The position numbers and the translations under genes are program-made. Positions 5,260-49,372 of a DNA stretch of 52,066 nt are shown piece by piece. Origin of the DNA: Candidatus Nealsonbacteria bacterium RIFOXYB1_FULL_40_15. Its GTDB lineage: Bacteria > Patescibacteriota > Minisyncoccia > Minisyncoccales > GWA2-38-27. Each line of letters begins with the position of its first letter. Positions within the stretch are counted from its first letter, which is position 1. The notes under the pieces are model-generated. The model was not told the origin of the DNA. It saw only the letters and a list, made by a program, of their open reading frames with translations, and ran no database searches. The DNA is taken from positions 6,956 to 59,021 of the forward strand of contig MHMM01000005.1 of the NCBI GenBank assembly GCA_001821555.1. Direction: 5' to 3'.

Positions 5260-5336
5260 AGCCCGGTCTTTGAGAGGCTCGCCTCGCTAGATCCTACGGC
5301 GAAGCGGGTCGGGCCTCTGCCAACTTTTCCCGACTC

Positions 5337-5382
5337 TTTTCTACTGCCCATTTGGGCAGTTTTGTGTTAGGATAAAACAATG
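5337..5382 (+). promoter_or_regulatory. Repeat R1 copy 1: ACTGCCC-hairpin plus TTTTGTGTTAGGATAA promoter abutting ATG
   Basis: ttttctACTGCCCatttGGGCAGTtttgtgttaggataaaacaATG. Confidence 0.75.
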
Positions 5383-9200: not shown

Positions 9201-9282
9201 AGAGAGGAAAGACCCCTGTTCTACCTTCAAATTACAGGGTAGCAGTCACATTACAAGTCAAATAGACTAGGATGCCTATTCA

Positions 9283-9329
9283 TTTTCTACTGCCTAAAGG
9301 GGCAGTTTTGTGTTAGAATTAATCTAATG
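9283..9329 (+). promoter_or_regulatory. Repeat R1 copy 2
   Basis: ttttctactgcctaaaggggcagttttgtgttagaattaatctaATG. Confidence 0.75.
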
Positions 9330-13165: not shown

Positions 13166-13278
13166 ATAAAAAAACATCTAAAAATGAAAATAACGTGGAG
13201 AAGCGGGTCACCCCAATTTCCATGTAAGTCTCTCTATATGATTAATTTATGCCATGGACAATTAGAATAGATATCGGA

Positions 13279-13362
13279 GAGTGATAGATCCCGAGGGTCT
13301 AACACTCTCCGAGGGTCTAACACTCTCCGAGGGTCTAACACTCTCCGAGGGTCTAACACTCT
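13279..13362 (+). repeat. Repeat R2 copy 1: inverted repeat GAGTGATAGATCC-CGA-GGGTCTAACACTC plus four tandem 18-bp units (cgagggtctaacactctc)
   Basis: Direct reading; units begin at 13292, 13310, 13328 and 13346. Confidence 0.9.
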
Positions 13363-13380
13363 AACACCCCTATGACAACT

Positions 13381-13430
13381 TTTTCAGGACTGCCCAAATG
13401 GGCAGTTTTGTGTTAGGATAAGATTATATG
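13381..13430 (+). promoter_or_regulatory. Repeat R1 copy 3
   Basis: ttttcaggactgcccaaatgggcagttttgtgttaggataagattatATG. Confidence 0.75.
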
Positions 13431-13871
13431 AAAGAAAGATTTAAAATTACACCCGCAGTTTATTTGATTTTAATAAAAGACGGTAAAATTCTTCTCCAAA
13501 GAAGATATAATACTGGATATTTTGATGGCTATTATAGTCTTCCAGCCGGGCATTTGGATGGAAACGAAACCTTTAAGCAAGCGATGGCAAGGGAGGCAAA
13601 AGAGGAGACGGGCATTGACCTGGATGTGGCGGATTTGGAGCTGGTTCATGTAATGAACCGCAAAATACCCGAAAACGAAAGAGCAGATTTCTTTTTTACG
13701 GCCAAAAATTGGATAGGCGAACCGAAAATAACGGAATCGGACAAGTGCGATGATTTAAGTTGGTTTGATTTGAATAATCTGCCGGATAATATAATTCCGT
13801 ATATAAAGCAGGCAATTAATTCTTTTTCAAATAATATAATTTACAGCGAATGCGAAGGCGAAAAAAAATAA
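13428..13871 (+). CDS. NUDIX hydrolase
   Basis: Nudix box 'GHLDGNETFKQAMAREAKEETGIDL'. Confidence 0.9.
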   Translation: MKERFKITPAVYLILIKDGKILLQRRYNTGYFDGYYSLPAGHLDGNETFKQAMAREAKEETGIDLDVADLELVHVMNRKIPENERADFFFTAKNWIGEPKITESDKCDDLSWFDLNNLPDNIIPYIKQAINSFSNNIIYSECEGEKK

Positions 13872-13872
13872 T

Positions 13873-14310
13873 GTGAAAGAAGAAAAGAAACTATTTCCCA
13901 ACGAAACTGTTTTAATAACCAAGTATTTTGATATTCATCAGGATTGGGAAGTTCCTATTCCCGGATTTTTTATTATTGCATCTGTAAGAAATATAAAGTC
14001 TATTGCAGATTTTACGGAAGATGAGTTAAGAGAATTCAGCCAAATTCTTTGCCAGATGAGAATTGGCATGAGGGAAATTTTGAATATTCAAGAAGTTTAT
14101 CTTTTTCAAAGAGAAGATACTGAGCACACTTTTCATTTGTGTTTATTTCCCAGATATGATTGGATGGAAAAATTCGGAAAAAAATCAGAATCAATGCGCC
14201 CGATTATAAATTATGCAAAAGAAAATATGTGCAACGAAGATATTTTCAGAGAGGTAAAAAAGACGGTGGCTAAAATCAGAAATTATATGGAAAAATTAAT
14301 AAAAATATGA
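13873..14310 (+). CDS. HIT-like protein
   Basis: GTG start; 'EVPIPGFFIIASVRN', 'LFQREDTEHTFHLCLFPR' HIT-like context. Confidence 0.5.
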   Translation: MKEEKKLFPNETVLITKYFDIHQDWEVPIPGFFIIASVRNIKSIADFTEDELREFSQILCQMRIGMREILNIQEVYLFQREDTEHTFHLCLFPRYDWMEKFGKKSESMRPIINYAKENMCNEDIFREVKKTVAKIRNYMEKLIKI

Positions 14311-14565
14311 GAAAACTTATTCTTGCGTCTGGTTCGCCATCGAGAAGGGAAATGTTCGAAAAAGCCGGGTTAGTTTTCGAAGTTAATCCGAGCAATTACG
14401 AAGAAGATATGTCTTTGTAGCTTTCTCCGAAAGAGTTAGCGATGCATCTTTCTATAGGCAAGGCTCGGGCGGTTGCCGATAGATACAAACAAGGCGTGAT
14501 AGTTGGTGCGGATACATTTGTAGTTTATCAAAATCAAATTCTAGGAAAGCCGCATACTCCTGAAA
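14307..14565 (+). pseudogene. maf-like nucleotide pyrophosphatase, interrupted and truncated
   Basis: MRKLILASGSPSRREMFEKAGLVFEV...[TAG 14418-14420]...LSPKELAMHLSIGKARAVADRYKQGVIVGADTFVVYQNQILGKPHTP then R2 repeat. Confidence 0.85.
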
Positions 14566-14621
14566 GTGATAGATCCCGGTGATAGATCCCGAGGGTCTAA
14601 CACTCTAACACTCTATGTCAA
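14565..14621 (+). repeat. Repeat R2 copy 2
   Basis: agtgatagatcccggtgatagatcccgagggtctaacactctaacactctatgtcaac. Confidence 0.85.
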
Positions 14622-14622
14622 C

Positions 14623-14669
14623 TTTTTCTACTGCCTAAAAGGGCGGTTTTGTGTTAGAATAAAATAATG
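14623..14669 (+). promoter_or_regulatory. Repeat R1 copy 4
   Basis: ttttctactgcctaaaagggcggttttgtgttagaataaaataATG. Confidence 0.75.
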
Positions 14670-15158
14670 GAAAGAAAAGGGAAAAATAACTTTGCATTTA
14701 TAGACGGTCAAAATCTCCATCTTGGTATTCATAGCTTGGGCTGGAAGCTAAGTTTTAGCCGTTTCAGAAAATATCTTGCCGAAAAATATTCTGTGACAAC
14801 CGCCTATTATTTTATCGGATATATGCCCGGAAATCAGCCATTATATTCAGAACTGCAAAAATCCGGATACGTGTTGATATTCAAGCCAACCGTTCCTGAC
14901 GACAACGGCAATGTTAAGGGAAACGTAGACGCCGATTTAGTTTTACAGGCGATGATTGATTTCCCAAACTATAATAAAGCAATAATTGTAACAAGCGACG
15001 GGGATTTCTATTCTTTGGTAAAATATCTTTATCAAAATAATAAATTACGGTTTATAATGAGTCCTTATGTTAAAACCTGTTCAACCTTACTAAAAAAGGA
15101 AGCAAAAGAAAAAATCGTATTTATGAATAATTTACGACAAAAACTTGAATTAAAATGA
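14667..15158 (+). CDS. NYN domain (LabA/DUF88-like) protein, paralog B
   Basis: 'FAFIDGQNLHLGIHSLGWKLSFSRFRKYLAEKYSVTTAYYFIG', 'GNVDADLVLQAMID', 'AIIVTSDGDFYSLVKYL'. Confidence 0.9.
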   Translation: MERKGKNNFAFIDGQNLHLGIHSLGWKLSFSRFRKYLAEKYSVTTAYYFIGYMPGNQPLYSELQKSGYVLIFKPTVPDDNGNVKGNVDADLVLQAMIDFPNYNKAIIVTSDGDFYSLVKYLYQNNKLRFIMSPYVKTCSTLLKKEAKEKIVFMNNLRQKLELK

Positions 15159-15160
15159 AA

Positions 15161-15200
15161 AGGCACCGCCAAGGGACGAAACCCAGGGAGGTGCCTTCTC
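15161..15200 (+). terminator. Intrinsic terminator
   Basis: AAGGCACC ... GGTGCCTT followed by tct. Confidence 0.6.
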
Positions 15201-15320
15201 TTATGGATATTTGTAGTATAGCATAAAAAGAGGTTAAAGGTCAATGAATCTGTGGATAACTAAAATATGAAGCCGATTTGTTAGGGGATTTATATAAATT
15301 AATTCTAAAATTCTAAAAAA

Positions 15321-15911
15321 ATGGCAAAGACTAAAATTTTAGTTAAAGGTTATGCGAAAGAGATAGACGGGGAAGAGCATGCTTCTTCTACGGCGACACT
15401 GATTCAAGAGAACGGTTTAAACATAATTGTAGATCCGGGCATGGACAGGAAGGCATTGTTGGAAGGAATGTCAAAAGAAGGATTAGCAACAGGAGATATA
15501 AATTTTGTTGTTTTAACTCATACTCACTTAGACCATTGCCTTTTGGCTGGTATCTTTGAAAATGCCAAGGTTTTGGACAATAGCGACATATTTTCTTTTG
15601 ACGGGCGCATTGGCGAACACGATGGCAGAATTCCAGGCACCGACATAGAAATTGTAGGAACACCTGGCCATGATCAATTTCACTGCTCCGTCTTGGCGAA
15701 TACGGAGGATTTGGGCAAAGTAGTTATTGCCGGAGACATATTTTGGTGGTCAGATGATGAAGAGCAGAAAACAGATAGGGAATCATTAATAAACCACGAA
15801 GATCCTTACGTAAAAGATGAAGAAGCTTTAAAAGAAAGCAGGAATAAGATTTTGGATATTGCAGATTATATCATCCCGGGCCACGGCGAAATGTTTAAAG
15901 TCAAGAAATAA
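15321..15911 (+). CDS. Metallo-beta-lactamase fold hydrolase
   Basis: 'VVLTHTHLDHCLLAGIF', 'IVGTPGHDQFHCSVL', 'IIPGHGEMF'. Confidence 0.88.
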   Translation: MAKTKILVKGYAKEIDGEEHASSTATLIQENGLNIIVDPGMDRKALLEGMSKEGLATGDINFVVLTHTHLDHCLLAGIFENAKVLDNSDIFSFDGRIGEHDGRIPGTDIEIVGTPGHDQFHCSVLANTEDLGKVVIAGDIFWWSDDEEQKTDRESLINHEDPYVKDEEALKESRNKILDIADYIIPGHGEMFKVKK

Positions 15912-15915
15912 TTTT

Positions 15916-16362
15916 ATGAAAGATGTTAAAAAGCACCCGAAAGTGGGAGTAGGAGTTATTCTATTAAAGAATAACAAGATTTTATTGGGAAAAAGGCATG
16001 AAGATCCAGCGAAAGCCGATAGTCAGCTTCATGGAGAAGGAACTTGGACATTACCCGGAGGCAAGCTTGATTTTGGAGAGAATCTAGAGGATTGTGCGGC
16101 AAGGGAAACATTGGAAGAAACAAGTATAAAAATTAATAAAGATAGCATTAAAATTATAAGCGTGACAAATGATAAAGTTAAAGATGCCCATTTTGTAACT
16201 GTTGGTTTCTTGTGCGAAGATTTTGAGGGAGAAAAAAAGGTGATGGAGCCGGATGAAATAACAGAATGGAAATGGTTTGATTTGGACAACATCCCGAGCC
16301 CGATGTTTTTCCCAAGCGAAAAAGTAATAAAAAACTTTATTAATAAGGAAAATAAATTTTAA
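15916..16362 (+). CDS. NUDIX hydrolase
   Basis: Nudix box 'GGKLDFGENLEDCAARETLEETSI'; start set at MKDVKKHPKVGVGV. Confidence 0.9.
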   Translation: MKDVKKHPKVGVGVILLKNNKILLGKRHEDPAKADSQLHGEGTWTLPGGKLDFGENLEDCAARETLEETSIKINKDSIKIISVTNDKVKDAHFVTVGFLCEDFEGEKKVMEPDEITEWKWFDLDNIPSPMFFPSEKVIKNFINKENKF

Positions 16363-16364
16363 TC

Positions 16365-16850
16365 ATGGTTCAGAGATATTTCACACAAACATTCGGAGTA
16401 GTTGCTGCAATCATAGAAAAGGAAGGAAAAATTCTTATGGTTAAAGAAGTCAAAGAAATAGCCAAGGATTTATGGAACCATCCTGCTGGCTGGATTGATG
16501 TTGGAGAAAATCCCATCGAAGCCGTAAAGAGAGAGGTTAAAGAGGAAACAGGATATGATTTTACACCGACAGGAATTATAGGCATCTATTCTTTTTACAA
16601 AAAGCATTTGAAAGAAGATTATAATATAACGCCTCACGCTATTAAGATTGTATTTGCGGGCACGATAGTAGAAGAAGGGAGAACAGAACTGGCTGAAGAT
16701 GTTTCAGAAAATAAATGGTTTTCTCCGAAAGAAATTTACAAAATGGATAAAAATACTTTAAGGGATATTGATATAAAACAGATTCTAAAAGATTATCTTT
16801 CCGGCAAGAATTACCCCTTGGAATTAATAACTCAGATCACAAGTGAATAA
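16365..16850 (+). CDS. NUDIX hydrolase
   Basis: Nudix box 'GWIDVGENPIEAVKREVKEETGYDF'. Confidence 0.9.
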   Translation: MVQRYFTQTFGVVAAIIEKEGKILMVKEVKEIAKDLWNHPAGWIDVGENPIEAVKREVKEETGYDFTPTGIIGIYSFYKKHLKEDYNITPHAIKIVFAGTIVEEGRTELAEDVSENKWFSPKEIYKMDKNTLRDIDIKQILKDYLSGKNYPLELITQITSE

Positions 16851-16886
16851 CATAAAAAACAGAACCAAAAGATAGGAATTATCAAA

Positions 16887-17987
16887 ATGAATCGAGAGAA
16901 AATAAAAAACGAAGACTTAGGATATAATTCTTTTTTTGAAGCCGAAAGAAACCGGCTCAAGATGAATGATTTTCCGGTTGCCCGGGTTATTTCCGAACTC
17001 AAAGAAGCATACAGGGTTAAAAATCCAAAAGGAGAGTTTTTTGCAAAAATCACCGGTAAGCAGATTTTTACAGCTTCTTCCAGAGAGGATTATCCTGCCG
17101 TTGGCGACTGGGTTGTTATTACCGAGCTTGATGAAGAACGCGCCGTTATTCGCGGTGTTTTTCCCAGGATGACGATGATTAAAAGAAAATACGGAGATAA
17201 GAATAGGGCTGGCGAGAAAAGCGAAACTCAAATTATTGCGACAAATATTGATGTTGCTTTTGTCGTTGAATCAGTCGATCGGGATTATAATTTGAACCGT
17301 TTTGAAAGATATTTTGCCATTGCAGAAAACGGGGGAGTAAAACCCGCAATTATACTTAATAAAATAGACCTTCTTTTGAAAGAAGACCTGGGAAAAAGAT
17401 TAACTCAATTGAGAAATAGGTTTCCCGGCATTGACATTATTTTAACGAGCGTCTTGAATAACGAGGGCCTTAATGAATTACGAAAATATATAATCAAAGG
17501 CAAGACATATTGCTTTTTGGGCTCATCTGGAGTGGGAAAATCCTCTCTAATCAATAAATTAATCGGCGAGAAAATAATTAAAACAGAGGATATTAGCTCT
17601 TATTCCGGCAGAGGCAAACATGCAACCACAAGCAGGCAGATGTATTTTCTGGATAACGGGGGGATAGTGATTGATAATCCGGGCATCCGCGAAGTCGGCA
17701 TGACCGATGTCGGCCAAGGAATTAATATAACCTTTAGCGAAATAGCTGCGTTGGCTCAAAAATGCAGATATACCGATTGCGCACATACTAATGAACCGGG
17801 TTGCGAGGTTATAAAAGCCGTAAAGTCCGGAAGATTGGATAAAGAAAAATACTCCAATTACATTAATCTTAGAAAAGAAGCCGAATATTATGAGATGAGC
17901 GATGTTGAAAGAAGAGAAAAAGACCGCCAGTTTGGCAAGTTTGTAAAGAATGCCATTAAAGATCTAAAAAAATACAAGGATAATTAA
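16887..17987 (+). CDS. rsgA: Ribosome small subunit-dependent GTPase (RsgA-like, circularly permuted)
   Basis: OB domain, 'NKIDLL', 'GSSGVGKSSLINKLIG', 'DNPGIREVGM', C-terminal CxxxxC..H..C zinc motif. Confidence 0.88.
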   Translation: MNREKIKNEDLGYNSFFEAERNRLKMNDFPVARVISELKEAYRVKNPKGEFFAKITGKQIFTASSREDYPAVGDWVVITELDEERAVIRGVFPRMTMIKRKYGDKNRAGEKSETQIIATNIDVAFVVESVDRDYNLNRFERYFAIAENGGVKPAIILNKIDLLLKEDLGKRLTQLRNRFPGIDIILTSVLNNEGLNELRKYIIKGKTYCFLGSSGVGKSSLINKLIGEKIIKTEDISSYSGRGKHATTSRQMYFLDNGGIVIDNPGIREVGMTDVGQGINITFSEIAALAQKCRYTDCAHTNEPGCEVIKAVKSGRLDKEKYSNYINLRKEAEYYEMSDVERREKDRQFGKFVKNAIKDLKKYKDN

Positions 17988-18027
17988 ACTAAAATAAATC
18001 TGTTTTTGAATTGTGCAGAAAGTGAAT

Positions 18028-18498
18028 ATGGCATATAGGTATTTTTCAGCAGGGTACTTAGTAAGAAATGGAAAGGTTTTTTTGATACACCACAGAAAAT
18101 TTGATAAATGGACTCCGCCCGGAGGACATATTGAAGAAAATGAAACACCAGATCAGGCTCTGACAAGAGAATGGAAAGAAGAACTTTCTTTAGACATAGA
18201 TATTCTGCCAGCTTATCAATCTGCTTTTTCGGGTGATGCAAATGCCACGCCAGTGCCAATGCCATTTCATATTGATCTTGAGCGAGAGGGATTTGAGAGT
18301 CCTCATATCGGGTATTTTTTTTATGTTAAGCTGCGTGATGAAAGCCAAAAAATCAACATTTTAGAAAGAGAGATGTTTGGCACAGGATGGTTTTCTAAAA
18401 GTGAATTACCAGGACTTAAAACCTTTGATCAAGTGAAATCCTTAGCAAGATTTGCAATTGAAAACTACCCCGGTCCGACAGGAAGCATTAAAGAATAA
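18028..18498 (+). CDS. NUDIX hydrolase
   Basis: Nudix box 'GGHIEENETPDQALTREWKEELSL'; start set at MAYRYFSAGYLV. Confidence 0.88.
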   Translation: MAYRYFSAGYLVRNGKVFLIHHRKFDKWTPPGGHIEENETPDQALTREWKEELSLDIDILPAYQSAFSGDANATPVPMPFHIDLEREGFESPHIGYFFYVKLRDESQKINILEREMFGTGWFSKSELPGLKTFDQVKSLARFAIENYPGPTGSIKE

Positions 18499-49237: not shown

Positions 49238-49372
49238 GGGGCCGTAGCTCAGTTGGTAGAGCACAAGGTGAGCTCATTCTCGCTAACCAAGCTTGCAAGC
49301 GCTGGTTCAAATGAAAATTTGAATCAAGATGAGTGAGGCTTGAGGTCGTGGGTTCGAATCCCGCCGGCTCCA
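49238..49372 (+). tRNA. tRNA-Ala-like gene interrupted in the anticodon loop region (about 62 extra nt); intron-containing or pseudo-tRNA
   Basis: Acceptor ggggccg/cggctcc with G3.U70, D-arm GCTC..GAGC, T-arm GTGGG-TTCGAAT-CCCGC, but 69 nt between CAAGG (27-31) and GCTTG (39-43). Confidence 0.65.

What the first reader, a model, noticed from the sequence alone, without database searches (positions are those of the whole stretch)
13277..13370. Inverted repeat plus four tandem 18-bp units (R2) just upstream of an R1 cassette
GAGTGaTAGAtCC-CGA-GGgTCTAaCACTC forms a 13-bp imperfect hairpin, and its right arm is then amplified as cgagggtctaacactctc x4 (13292-13362). The same R2 core recurs at 14565-14621, again directly before R1 (both followed by ctatg[a/t]caactttttc). 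R2+R1 thus form a composite boundary on either side of the Nudix-HIT-maf segment. Inference: a recombination or mobile cassette boundary, loosely analogous to integron attC sites, with repeat-number variation.
Basis: partly seen in the sequence, partly recalled or inferred. Interest (0 to 1): 0.7.

Follow-up and report, generated by a model that had tools for sequence, protein, structure and literature searches.

The report
Orphan transposase-associated palindrome with amplified arm
The repeat is a stray copy of a short hairpin sequence that, in related tiny-genome bacteria, sits on both sides of a transposase gene (RAYT), and here one half of the hairpin has been copied four times in a row; it is not a gene-cassette boundary like those of integrons.

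Summary
The repeat is real: an imperfect palindrome (13274-13312) with its right half in four perfect 18-bp copies (13291-13362). A second copy (14566-14611) has its left half doubled instead. The genome holds five copies at four places. The other two places have no R1, and two of the window's four R1 modules have no R2, so "R2+R1 composite boundary" fails.

A covariance model of the hairpin found the same palindrome (TGTTAGAC-nn-loop3-nn-GTCTAACA, always 7 nt between arms) in other genomes of the order. In four of them it lies 11-36 bp from Y1/HUH transposase genes (RAYTs) that form one clade (support 100/100). Among 30 RAYT loci, 20 carry a matching palindrome on both sides, against 0 of 161 control genes. 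R2 is therefore an atypical, tagless REP-like palindrome of a RAYT system. It is an orphan here: the genome's only RAYT belongs to another clade and sits beside a different palindrome.

Each R2 locus bears a different tandem duplication (13, 15, 18 or 71 bp). The best reading is hairpin-assisted local duplication, inferred and not shown. The palindrome at 14566 marks the break of a maf pseudogene. Strain variation could not be tested.

The parts
13274..13312 (+). R2 palindrome W1: TCGGAGAGTGATAGATCC-CGA-GGGTCTAACACTCTCCGA
   Evidence: the repeat finder I5, 18-nt arms 89% complementary; model hit 3.0e-9
13291..13362 (+). Right-arm array: four perfect 18-bp units CCGAGGGTCTAACACTCT
   Evidence: Tandem Repeats Finder, 4.0 copies, 100%
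13352..13367 (+). Terminal doubled partial unit TCTAACAC-TCTAACAC, present at the 3' end of every R2 copy in the genome
   Evidence: sequence
14566..14591 (+). R2 copy W2: left arm doubled, GTGATAGATCCCG x2
   Evidence: Tandem Repeats Finder
14579..14611 (+). R2 copy W2: palindrome GTGATAGATCC-CGA-GGGTCTAACAC plus terminal TCTAACAC
   Evidence: sequence; model hit 3.0e-6
14307..14565 (+). maf pseudogene: 5' half only, in-frame TAG at 14418-14420, broken where R2 W2 begins; no 3' half elsewhere in the genome
   Evidence: PF02545 match 1-86/187, one TAG, the only match in the genome
13370..13424 (+). R1 module before the Nudix gene (ACTGCCCAAATGGGCAGT hairpin, then TGTTAGGAT): likely terminator/promoter unit, separate from R2
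   Evidence: function inferred
14613..14665 (+). R1 module before the NYN gene
   Evidence: function inferred

Best explanation
R2 is an orphan copy of a short palindrome family that belongs to a RAYT (REP-associated Y1/HUH tyrosine transposase) system found in this order of small-genome bacteria. In relatives the palindrome TGTTAGAC-nn-(3-nt loop)-nn-GTCTAACA stands close to both ends of one clade of RAYT genes and is scattered between genes elsewhere; the expected action is that the transposase recognises the single-stranded hairpin and moves or copies it (inferred from known RAYTs). In the window's genome the cognate RAYT clade is absent and five palindromes remain. These remnants are unstable hairpins: each locus has acquired a different local tandem duplication (left half, right half or whole element), most simply by replication slippage in which the polymerase jumps from the foot of the hairpin back to its loop. 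At W1 both jump points read CCGA, which gives exactly the 18-bp unit. The W2 palindrome marks a rearrangement that cut off the 3' half of maf. Shown: family, RAYT linkage, clade specificity, absence of the cognate clade, duplications. Inferred: mobilisation by RAYT, slippage, any part in the maf break.
For: The hairpin model finds all five copies in the own genome and related palindromes in 17 of 146 other genomes. GTTAGACN{2,9}GTCTAAC occurs in 10 of 100 genomes, with very few control hits; all but two chance-like matches (G042, G060) have exactly 7 nt between the arms although 2-9 were allowed, including the C10 copy of the window's genome. GTTAGAC palindromes flank RAYT genes in G003, G021 (two loci), G067 and, as a CTAGAC variant, G090, 11-36 bp from the matched gene region. 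6 of 43 palindromes lie near a RAYT against 0.6 expected, P = 3e-5; these five RAYTs form one clade, 100/100. Matching palindromes on both sides: 20 of 30 RAYT loci; the 3 hits among 164 controls are RAYT genes themselves, so 0 of 161 others, Fisher 5e-20. The RAYTs match Y1_Tnp and, below cut-off, NCBIfam REP_Tyr_transpos. Own RAYT: one copy, 38% identical to the G067 protein, outside the clade, beside ATGAGCCTGGCTCA palindromes. Duplications: 18 bp x4, 13 bp x2, 71 bp x2, 15 bp x3; relatives also show single-arm duplications (G074 13 bp, G090 14 bp).
Against: No cognate RAYT is left in this genome, so movement of R2 is not observed. The exact R2 sequence (GTTAGACCC arms) is unique to this genome among those searched. 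The canonical REP head GT[AG]G is absent: 1 of 84 flanks. Copy number is very low (5). No empty site was found. The slippage mechanism rests on unit boundaries and a 4-bp microhomology only.
Confidence: 0.82

Rival explanations
1. The tandem half-palindrome array was made by the RAYT itself, for example by the rolling-circle amplification of palindrome modules proposed for BIMEs (Nunvar et al. 2010, PMC2817692), before the transposase was lost.
For: Arrays occur in palindromes of several RAYT families, some beside the gene: G076 has several GTTAGGG palindromes next to its RAYT and G090 has doubled arms beside its RAYT. The authors argue that BIME length variation is unlikely to result from slippage alone.
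Against: The unit here is one arm plus loop, not a whole palindrome or an inverted pair; unit length differs at every locus; no cognate RAYT is present now.
Confidence: 0.2
2. R2 is a regulatory element (operator array or transcript hairpin) acting with the promoter-like R1 module of the downstream gene.
For: Both window copies stand directly upstream of R1 and a start codon; tandem arrays can serve as operators.
Against: R2 at C4 (beside tRNA-Gln) and at C10 has no R1; R1 at about 5315 and 9260 has no R2; relatives carry the family next to RAYTs and scattered between unrelated genes.
Confidence: 0.08
3. R2 is a recombination site bounding exchangeable gene cassettes, like an integron attC site.
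For: Two direct copies bound the Nudix / maf-fragment segment; GTTAGAC and GTCTAAC happen to fit the core-site consensus GTTRRRY / RYYYAAC (from memory).
Against: The order of the two core motifs is reversed relative to attC; W1 and W2 lack GTT in the left arm; no integrase among 28 scanned window proteins; other R2 copies bound no cassettes.
Confidence: 0.03
4. The array is an assembly artefact of the metagenome-derived genome.
For: Only an assembled consensus is available and reads could not be examined.
Against: Independent duplications of different unit length are present at all four loci and also in relatives.
Confidence: 0.03

Closest known systems
REP sequences and RAYTs / TnpA-REP (Nunvar 2010 PMC2817692; REPINs, PMC3116915; TnpA-Y1 survey PMC6006769)
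   Same: Short extragenic palindrome, scattered copies, paired around a Y1 transposase gene, palindrome sequence specific to the transposase clade, orphan copies.
   Different: No GT[AG]G head, lower GC, only 5 copies here, cognate transposase absent from this genome, single-arm tandem amplification.
TnpA-Y1 subclass 2.6 and class 3 with 'atypical secondary structures' (PMC6006769)
   Same: Transposase gene flanked by non-canonical hairpins, copies of which occur elsewhere in the genome.
   Different: Reported mainly from Bacteroidetes (2.6) and from Planctomycetes, Acidobacteria and Proteobacteria (class 3); the subclass of the present RAYTs was not assigned.
BIMEs (tandem clusters of REPs)
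   Same: Tandem repetition that involves REP palindromes.
   Different: BIMEs alternate whole REPs in opposite orientation; here half a palindrome is repeated in direct orientation.
Integron attC sites
   Same: Short imperfect palindrome; 7-mers that fit the core-site consensus.
   Different: Core motifs in reversed order, no integrase found, no cassette array.

Membership tests
RAYT-associated REP system | Palindrome family flanks a Y1/HUH transposase gene | tested here: met
   In relatives: five RAYTs of one clade; 20 of 30 RAYT loci have matching palindromes on both sides against 0 of 161 control genes. Not in the window's own genome.
RAYT-associated REP system | Palindrome sequence tracks the transposase clade | tested here: met
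   The GTTAGAC group is one clade, 100/100; RAYTs of other clades have other palindromes.
RAYT-associated REP system | Flanking palindromes in inverted orientation | tested here: inconclusive
   Loop orientation is inverted (CCG/CGG) at G003 and G067 but not at G021 C1; the near-perfect palindrome makes orientation hard to read.
Canonical REP | GT[AG]G tetranucleotide 5' of the hairpin foot | tested here: not met
   1 of 84 flanks; hence called atypical, REP-like, not a canonical REP.
Canonical REP | High copy number (usually >100 per genome) | tested here: not met
   5 copies in the own genome; at most 27 model hits (both strands counted) in a relative.
Canonical REP | Extragenic location | tested here: met
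   W1, C4 and C10 are intergenic; W2 is at the broken end of a pseudogene.
Canonical REP | Bound and cleaved as single-stranded DNA by the cognate RAYT | not testable with these tools
   needs biochemistry
Integron attC | RYYYAAC ... GTTRRRY order of core boxes | tested here: not met
   Order is GTTAGAC ... GTCTAAC, and the left arm in W1/W2 is GATAGAT.
Integron attC | Integron integrase gene | tested here: inconclusive
   None among 28 window proteins between about 0.8 and 25.5 kb; no genome-wide search was made.

The most novel reading that the evidence does not exclude
Single-arm amplification of RAYT palindromes is an ongoing, hairpin-driven process that makes hypervariable arrays and breakpoints in these reduced genomes, even after the transposase is lost, and so shapes their accessory gene regions.
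Probability: 0.2. Interest if true: 0.6.

Novelty: new variant of a known kind. Interest (0 to 1): 0.42.

Why it matters
It points to a RAYT/palindrome system, with palindromes lacking the usual GT[AG]G tag, across an order of very small bacterial genomes; four full-text searches of the held library for palindromic repeats, RAYT, IS200 transposase or REP together with Patescibacteria or CPR found no paper that joins them. It also gives a clear example of half-palindrome amplification, a repeat pattern that looks like a new cassette system but is better read as decay and local expansion of orphan transposon palindromes.

Tried and rejected
Own-genome RAYT as the maker of R2: rejected, because it lies beside another palindrome family and belongs to another clade. 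Exact R2 core in 99 relatives: none. R2 signatures in viral contigs: none. Genome-contig scan: 32 scattered hits in unrelated taxa, treated as chance because about that many were expected. Phage and plasmid records: no match. Rfam: only tRNAs in the window. Conserved gene order: NYN homologues in relatives have unrelated upstream sequence with no R1 or R2 visible in the stretches read, so no empty site could be defined. R1 as part of R2: rejected, since each occurs without the other. Metagenome reads or strains: not available under the caps.

Full report
Observation. The sequence at 13274-13312 is an imperfect palindrome with 18-nt arms, 89% complementary, and a 3-nt loop. Its right half, with the loop, is present four times in perfect 18-bp units at 13291-13362. 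A second copy at 14566-14611 has the left half doubled (13-bp unit) and a single right half. Both end with a doubled TCTAACAC and are followed by CTATG[A/T]CAACTTTTTC, where the R1 module starts.

Genome-wide distribution. The window is 52 kb of a 761-kb genome estimated at 99% complete. Its size and gene content suggest a Patescibacteria-type organism; that is inference. R2 occurs at four places: W1 and W2 in the window; C4:40500-40643, two copies in a perfect 71-bp tandem duplication just 3' of tRNA-Gln; and C10:99671-99737, a palindrome with three right arms in 15-bp units, next to an ORF that matches only the C-terminal part of an oligopeptide-transporter ATPase. R1 occurs near 5315 and 9260 without R2, and the C4 and C10 copies have no R1. 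R2 and R1 are therefore separable.

The maf junction. The third gene of the segment is a maf pseudogene: it has an in-frame TAG, matches only positions 1-86 of 187 of the Maf profile, and has no other piece in the genome. Its homology ends where R2 W2 begins, and the other side of R2 is the NYN gene's R1. R2 thus lies at a rearrangement breakpoint. Whether it took part in the break is unknown.

What the family is. The exact R2 core was not found in 99 relatives, but a covariance model of the hairpin found related palindromes in 17 other genomes of the order. A pattern search showed one architecture: GTTAGAC, 7 nt, GTCTAAC, that is, a 9-bp inner stem with a 3-nt loop, although 2-9 nt were allowed between the arms. 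The C10 copy of the window's genome fits exactly; W1, W2 and C4 differ by the A-A mismatch of GATAGA against TCTAAC. Reading around these palindromes showed that in G003, G021 (two loci), G067 and G090 they stand close to the ends of a gene of the Y1/HUH transposase family. These proteins match Pfam Y1_Tnp and, below the curated cut-off, the NCBIfam REP-associated tyrosine transposase; they read MPNHFHL and YIHRNP/YVHRNP, the HUH and tyrosine motifs of the class (motif signature from PMC6006769).

Statistics. 6 of 43 GTTAGAC palindromes lie near a RAYT against 0.6 expected (P = 3e-5). More generally, 20 of 30 RAYT loci carry palindromes that share a 9-mer on both sides of the gene. The same test gave 3 hits among 164 control ORFs; by their coordinates all three are RAYT genes themselves, so the remaining controls give 0 of 161 (Fisher 5e-20). 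A maximum-likelihood tree puts the five GTTAGAC-flanked RAYTs in one clade with 100/100 support, and other clades have their own palindromes. This matches the published RAYT-REP co-evolution (PMC2817692).

Orphan status. The window's genome has one RAYT, on contig C8. It is 38% identical to the G067 protein over the aligned part, falls outside the GTTAGAC clade, and lies beside ATGAGCCTGGCTCA palindromes. R2 is therefore an orphan remnant, or the cognate gene lies in the small missing part of the assembly.

The arm array. All four R2 loci carry tandem duplications with different units: 18 bp x4 right half (W1), 13 bp x2 left half (W2), 15 bp x3 right half (C10), 71 bp x2 whole element (C4). 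Relatives show the same kind of event: the left half doubled with a 13-bp unit in G074 and arms doubled in G090 (14-bp unit). At W1 the motif CCGA occurs both at the loop and at the foot of the right arm, and a slip from one to the other gives exactly the 18-bp unit. This suggests hairpin-assisted replication slippage. RAYT-driven rolling-circle amplification, as proposed for BIMEs, is the main rival.

Relation to known families. It works like, and is related to, RAYT-associated palindromes, but it fails two features of canonical REPs: the GT[AG]G head (1 of 84 flanks) and high copy number. I therefore call it an atypical REP-like palindrome of a RAYT system. Tagless 'atypical secondary structures' beside TnpA-Y1 genes are known for subclass 2.6 and class 3 (PMC6006769). 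Integron attC membership fails: the core boxes are in the wrong order and no integrase was seen among the 28 proteins scanned. Literature searches for palindromic repeats, RAYT, IS200 transposase or REP together with Patescibacteria or candidate phyla radiation found no paper that joins them; the library is open-access only.

Limits. No reads, no sister strains and no empty site were available. Mobilisation by a RAYT, slippage, and any role of R2 in the maf break are inferences.

Noticed in passing
window 49238-49372 (+): tRNA gene (Rfam 52.7 bits) with an insert of about 60 nt in the anticodon loop, missed by ARAGORN: looks like a small tRNA intron, too short for an ordinary group I intron.
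   Followed up: partly
window 5315-5378, about 9260-9324, 13370-13424, 14613-14665; also L017 and other genome copies: R1 module: ACTGCC-loop-GGGCAGT hairpin, then TTTTGTGTTAG[A/G]AT a few bases before the start codon; looks like a combined terminator and extended -10 (possibly leaderless) promoter shared by Nudix, NYN, TrmB-like and other genes.
   Followed up: partly
L043 4576-4604, 4781-4809, 8454-8482; L044 6697-6726: A second palindrome family, ATGAGCCTGGCTCAT / ATGAGCCAGGCTCAC in doubled 15-bp units, beside the genome's own RAYT (L043 4854-5576) and elsewhere: probable palindrome of that RAYT.
   Followed up: partly
L044 4674-5035: tRNA-Gln(ttg) with a 20-bp duplicate of part of the tRNA about 300 bp away on the far side of a GIY-YIG endonuclease gene, suggesting insertion of that gene at the tRNA.
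   Followed up: no
window 13428-18498: Four separate NUDIX genes in 5 kb (13428, 15859, 16365, 18013) among other small genes, plus two NYN paralogues (9327, 14667; about 51% identical).
   Followed up: no
window 15157-15195 and L079 (G028): The hairpin after the NYN gene (GGCACCGCCAAGGGACGAAACC...GGTGCC) is conserved downstream of the NYN homologue in G028, more than a plain terminator would need.
   Followed up: no
L045 4224-4574 (-): 116-aa ORF whose C-terminal part matches an oligopeptide-transporter ATPase tail and whose start looks CYTH-like by eye; probable rearrangement product next to the C10 copy of R2.
   Followed up: no
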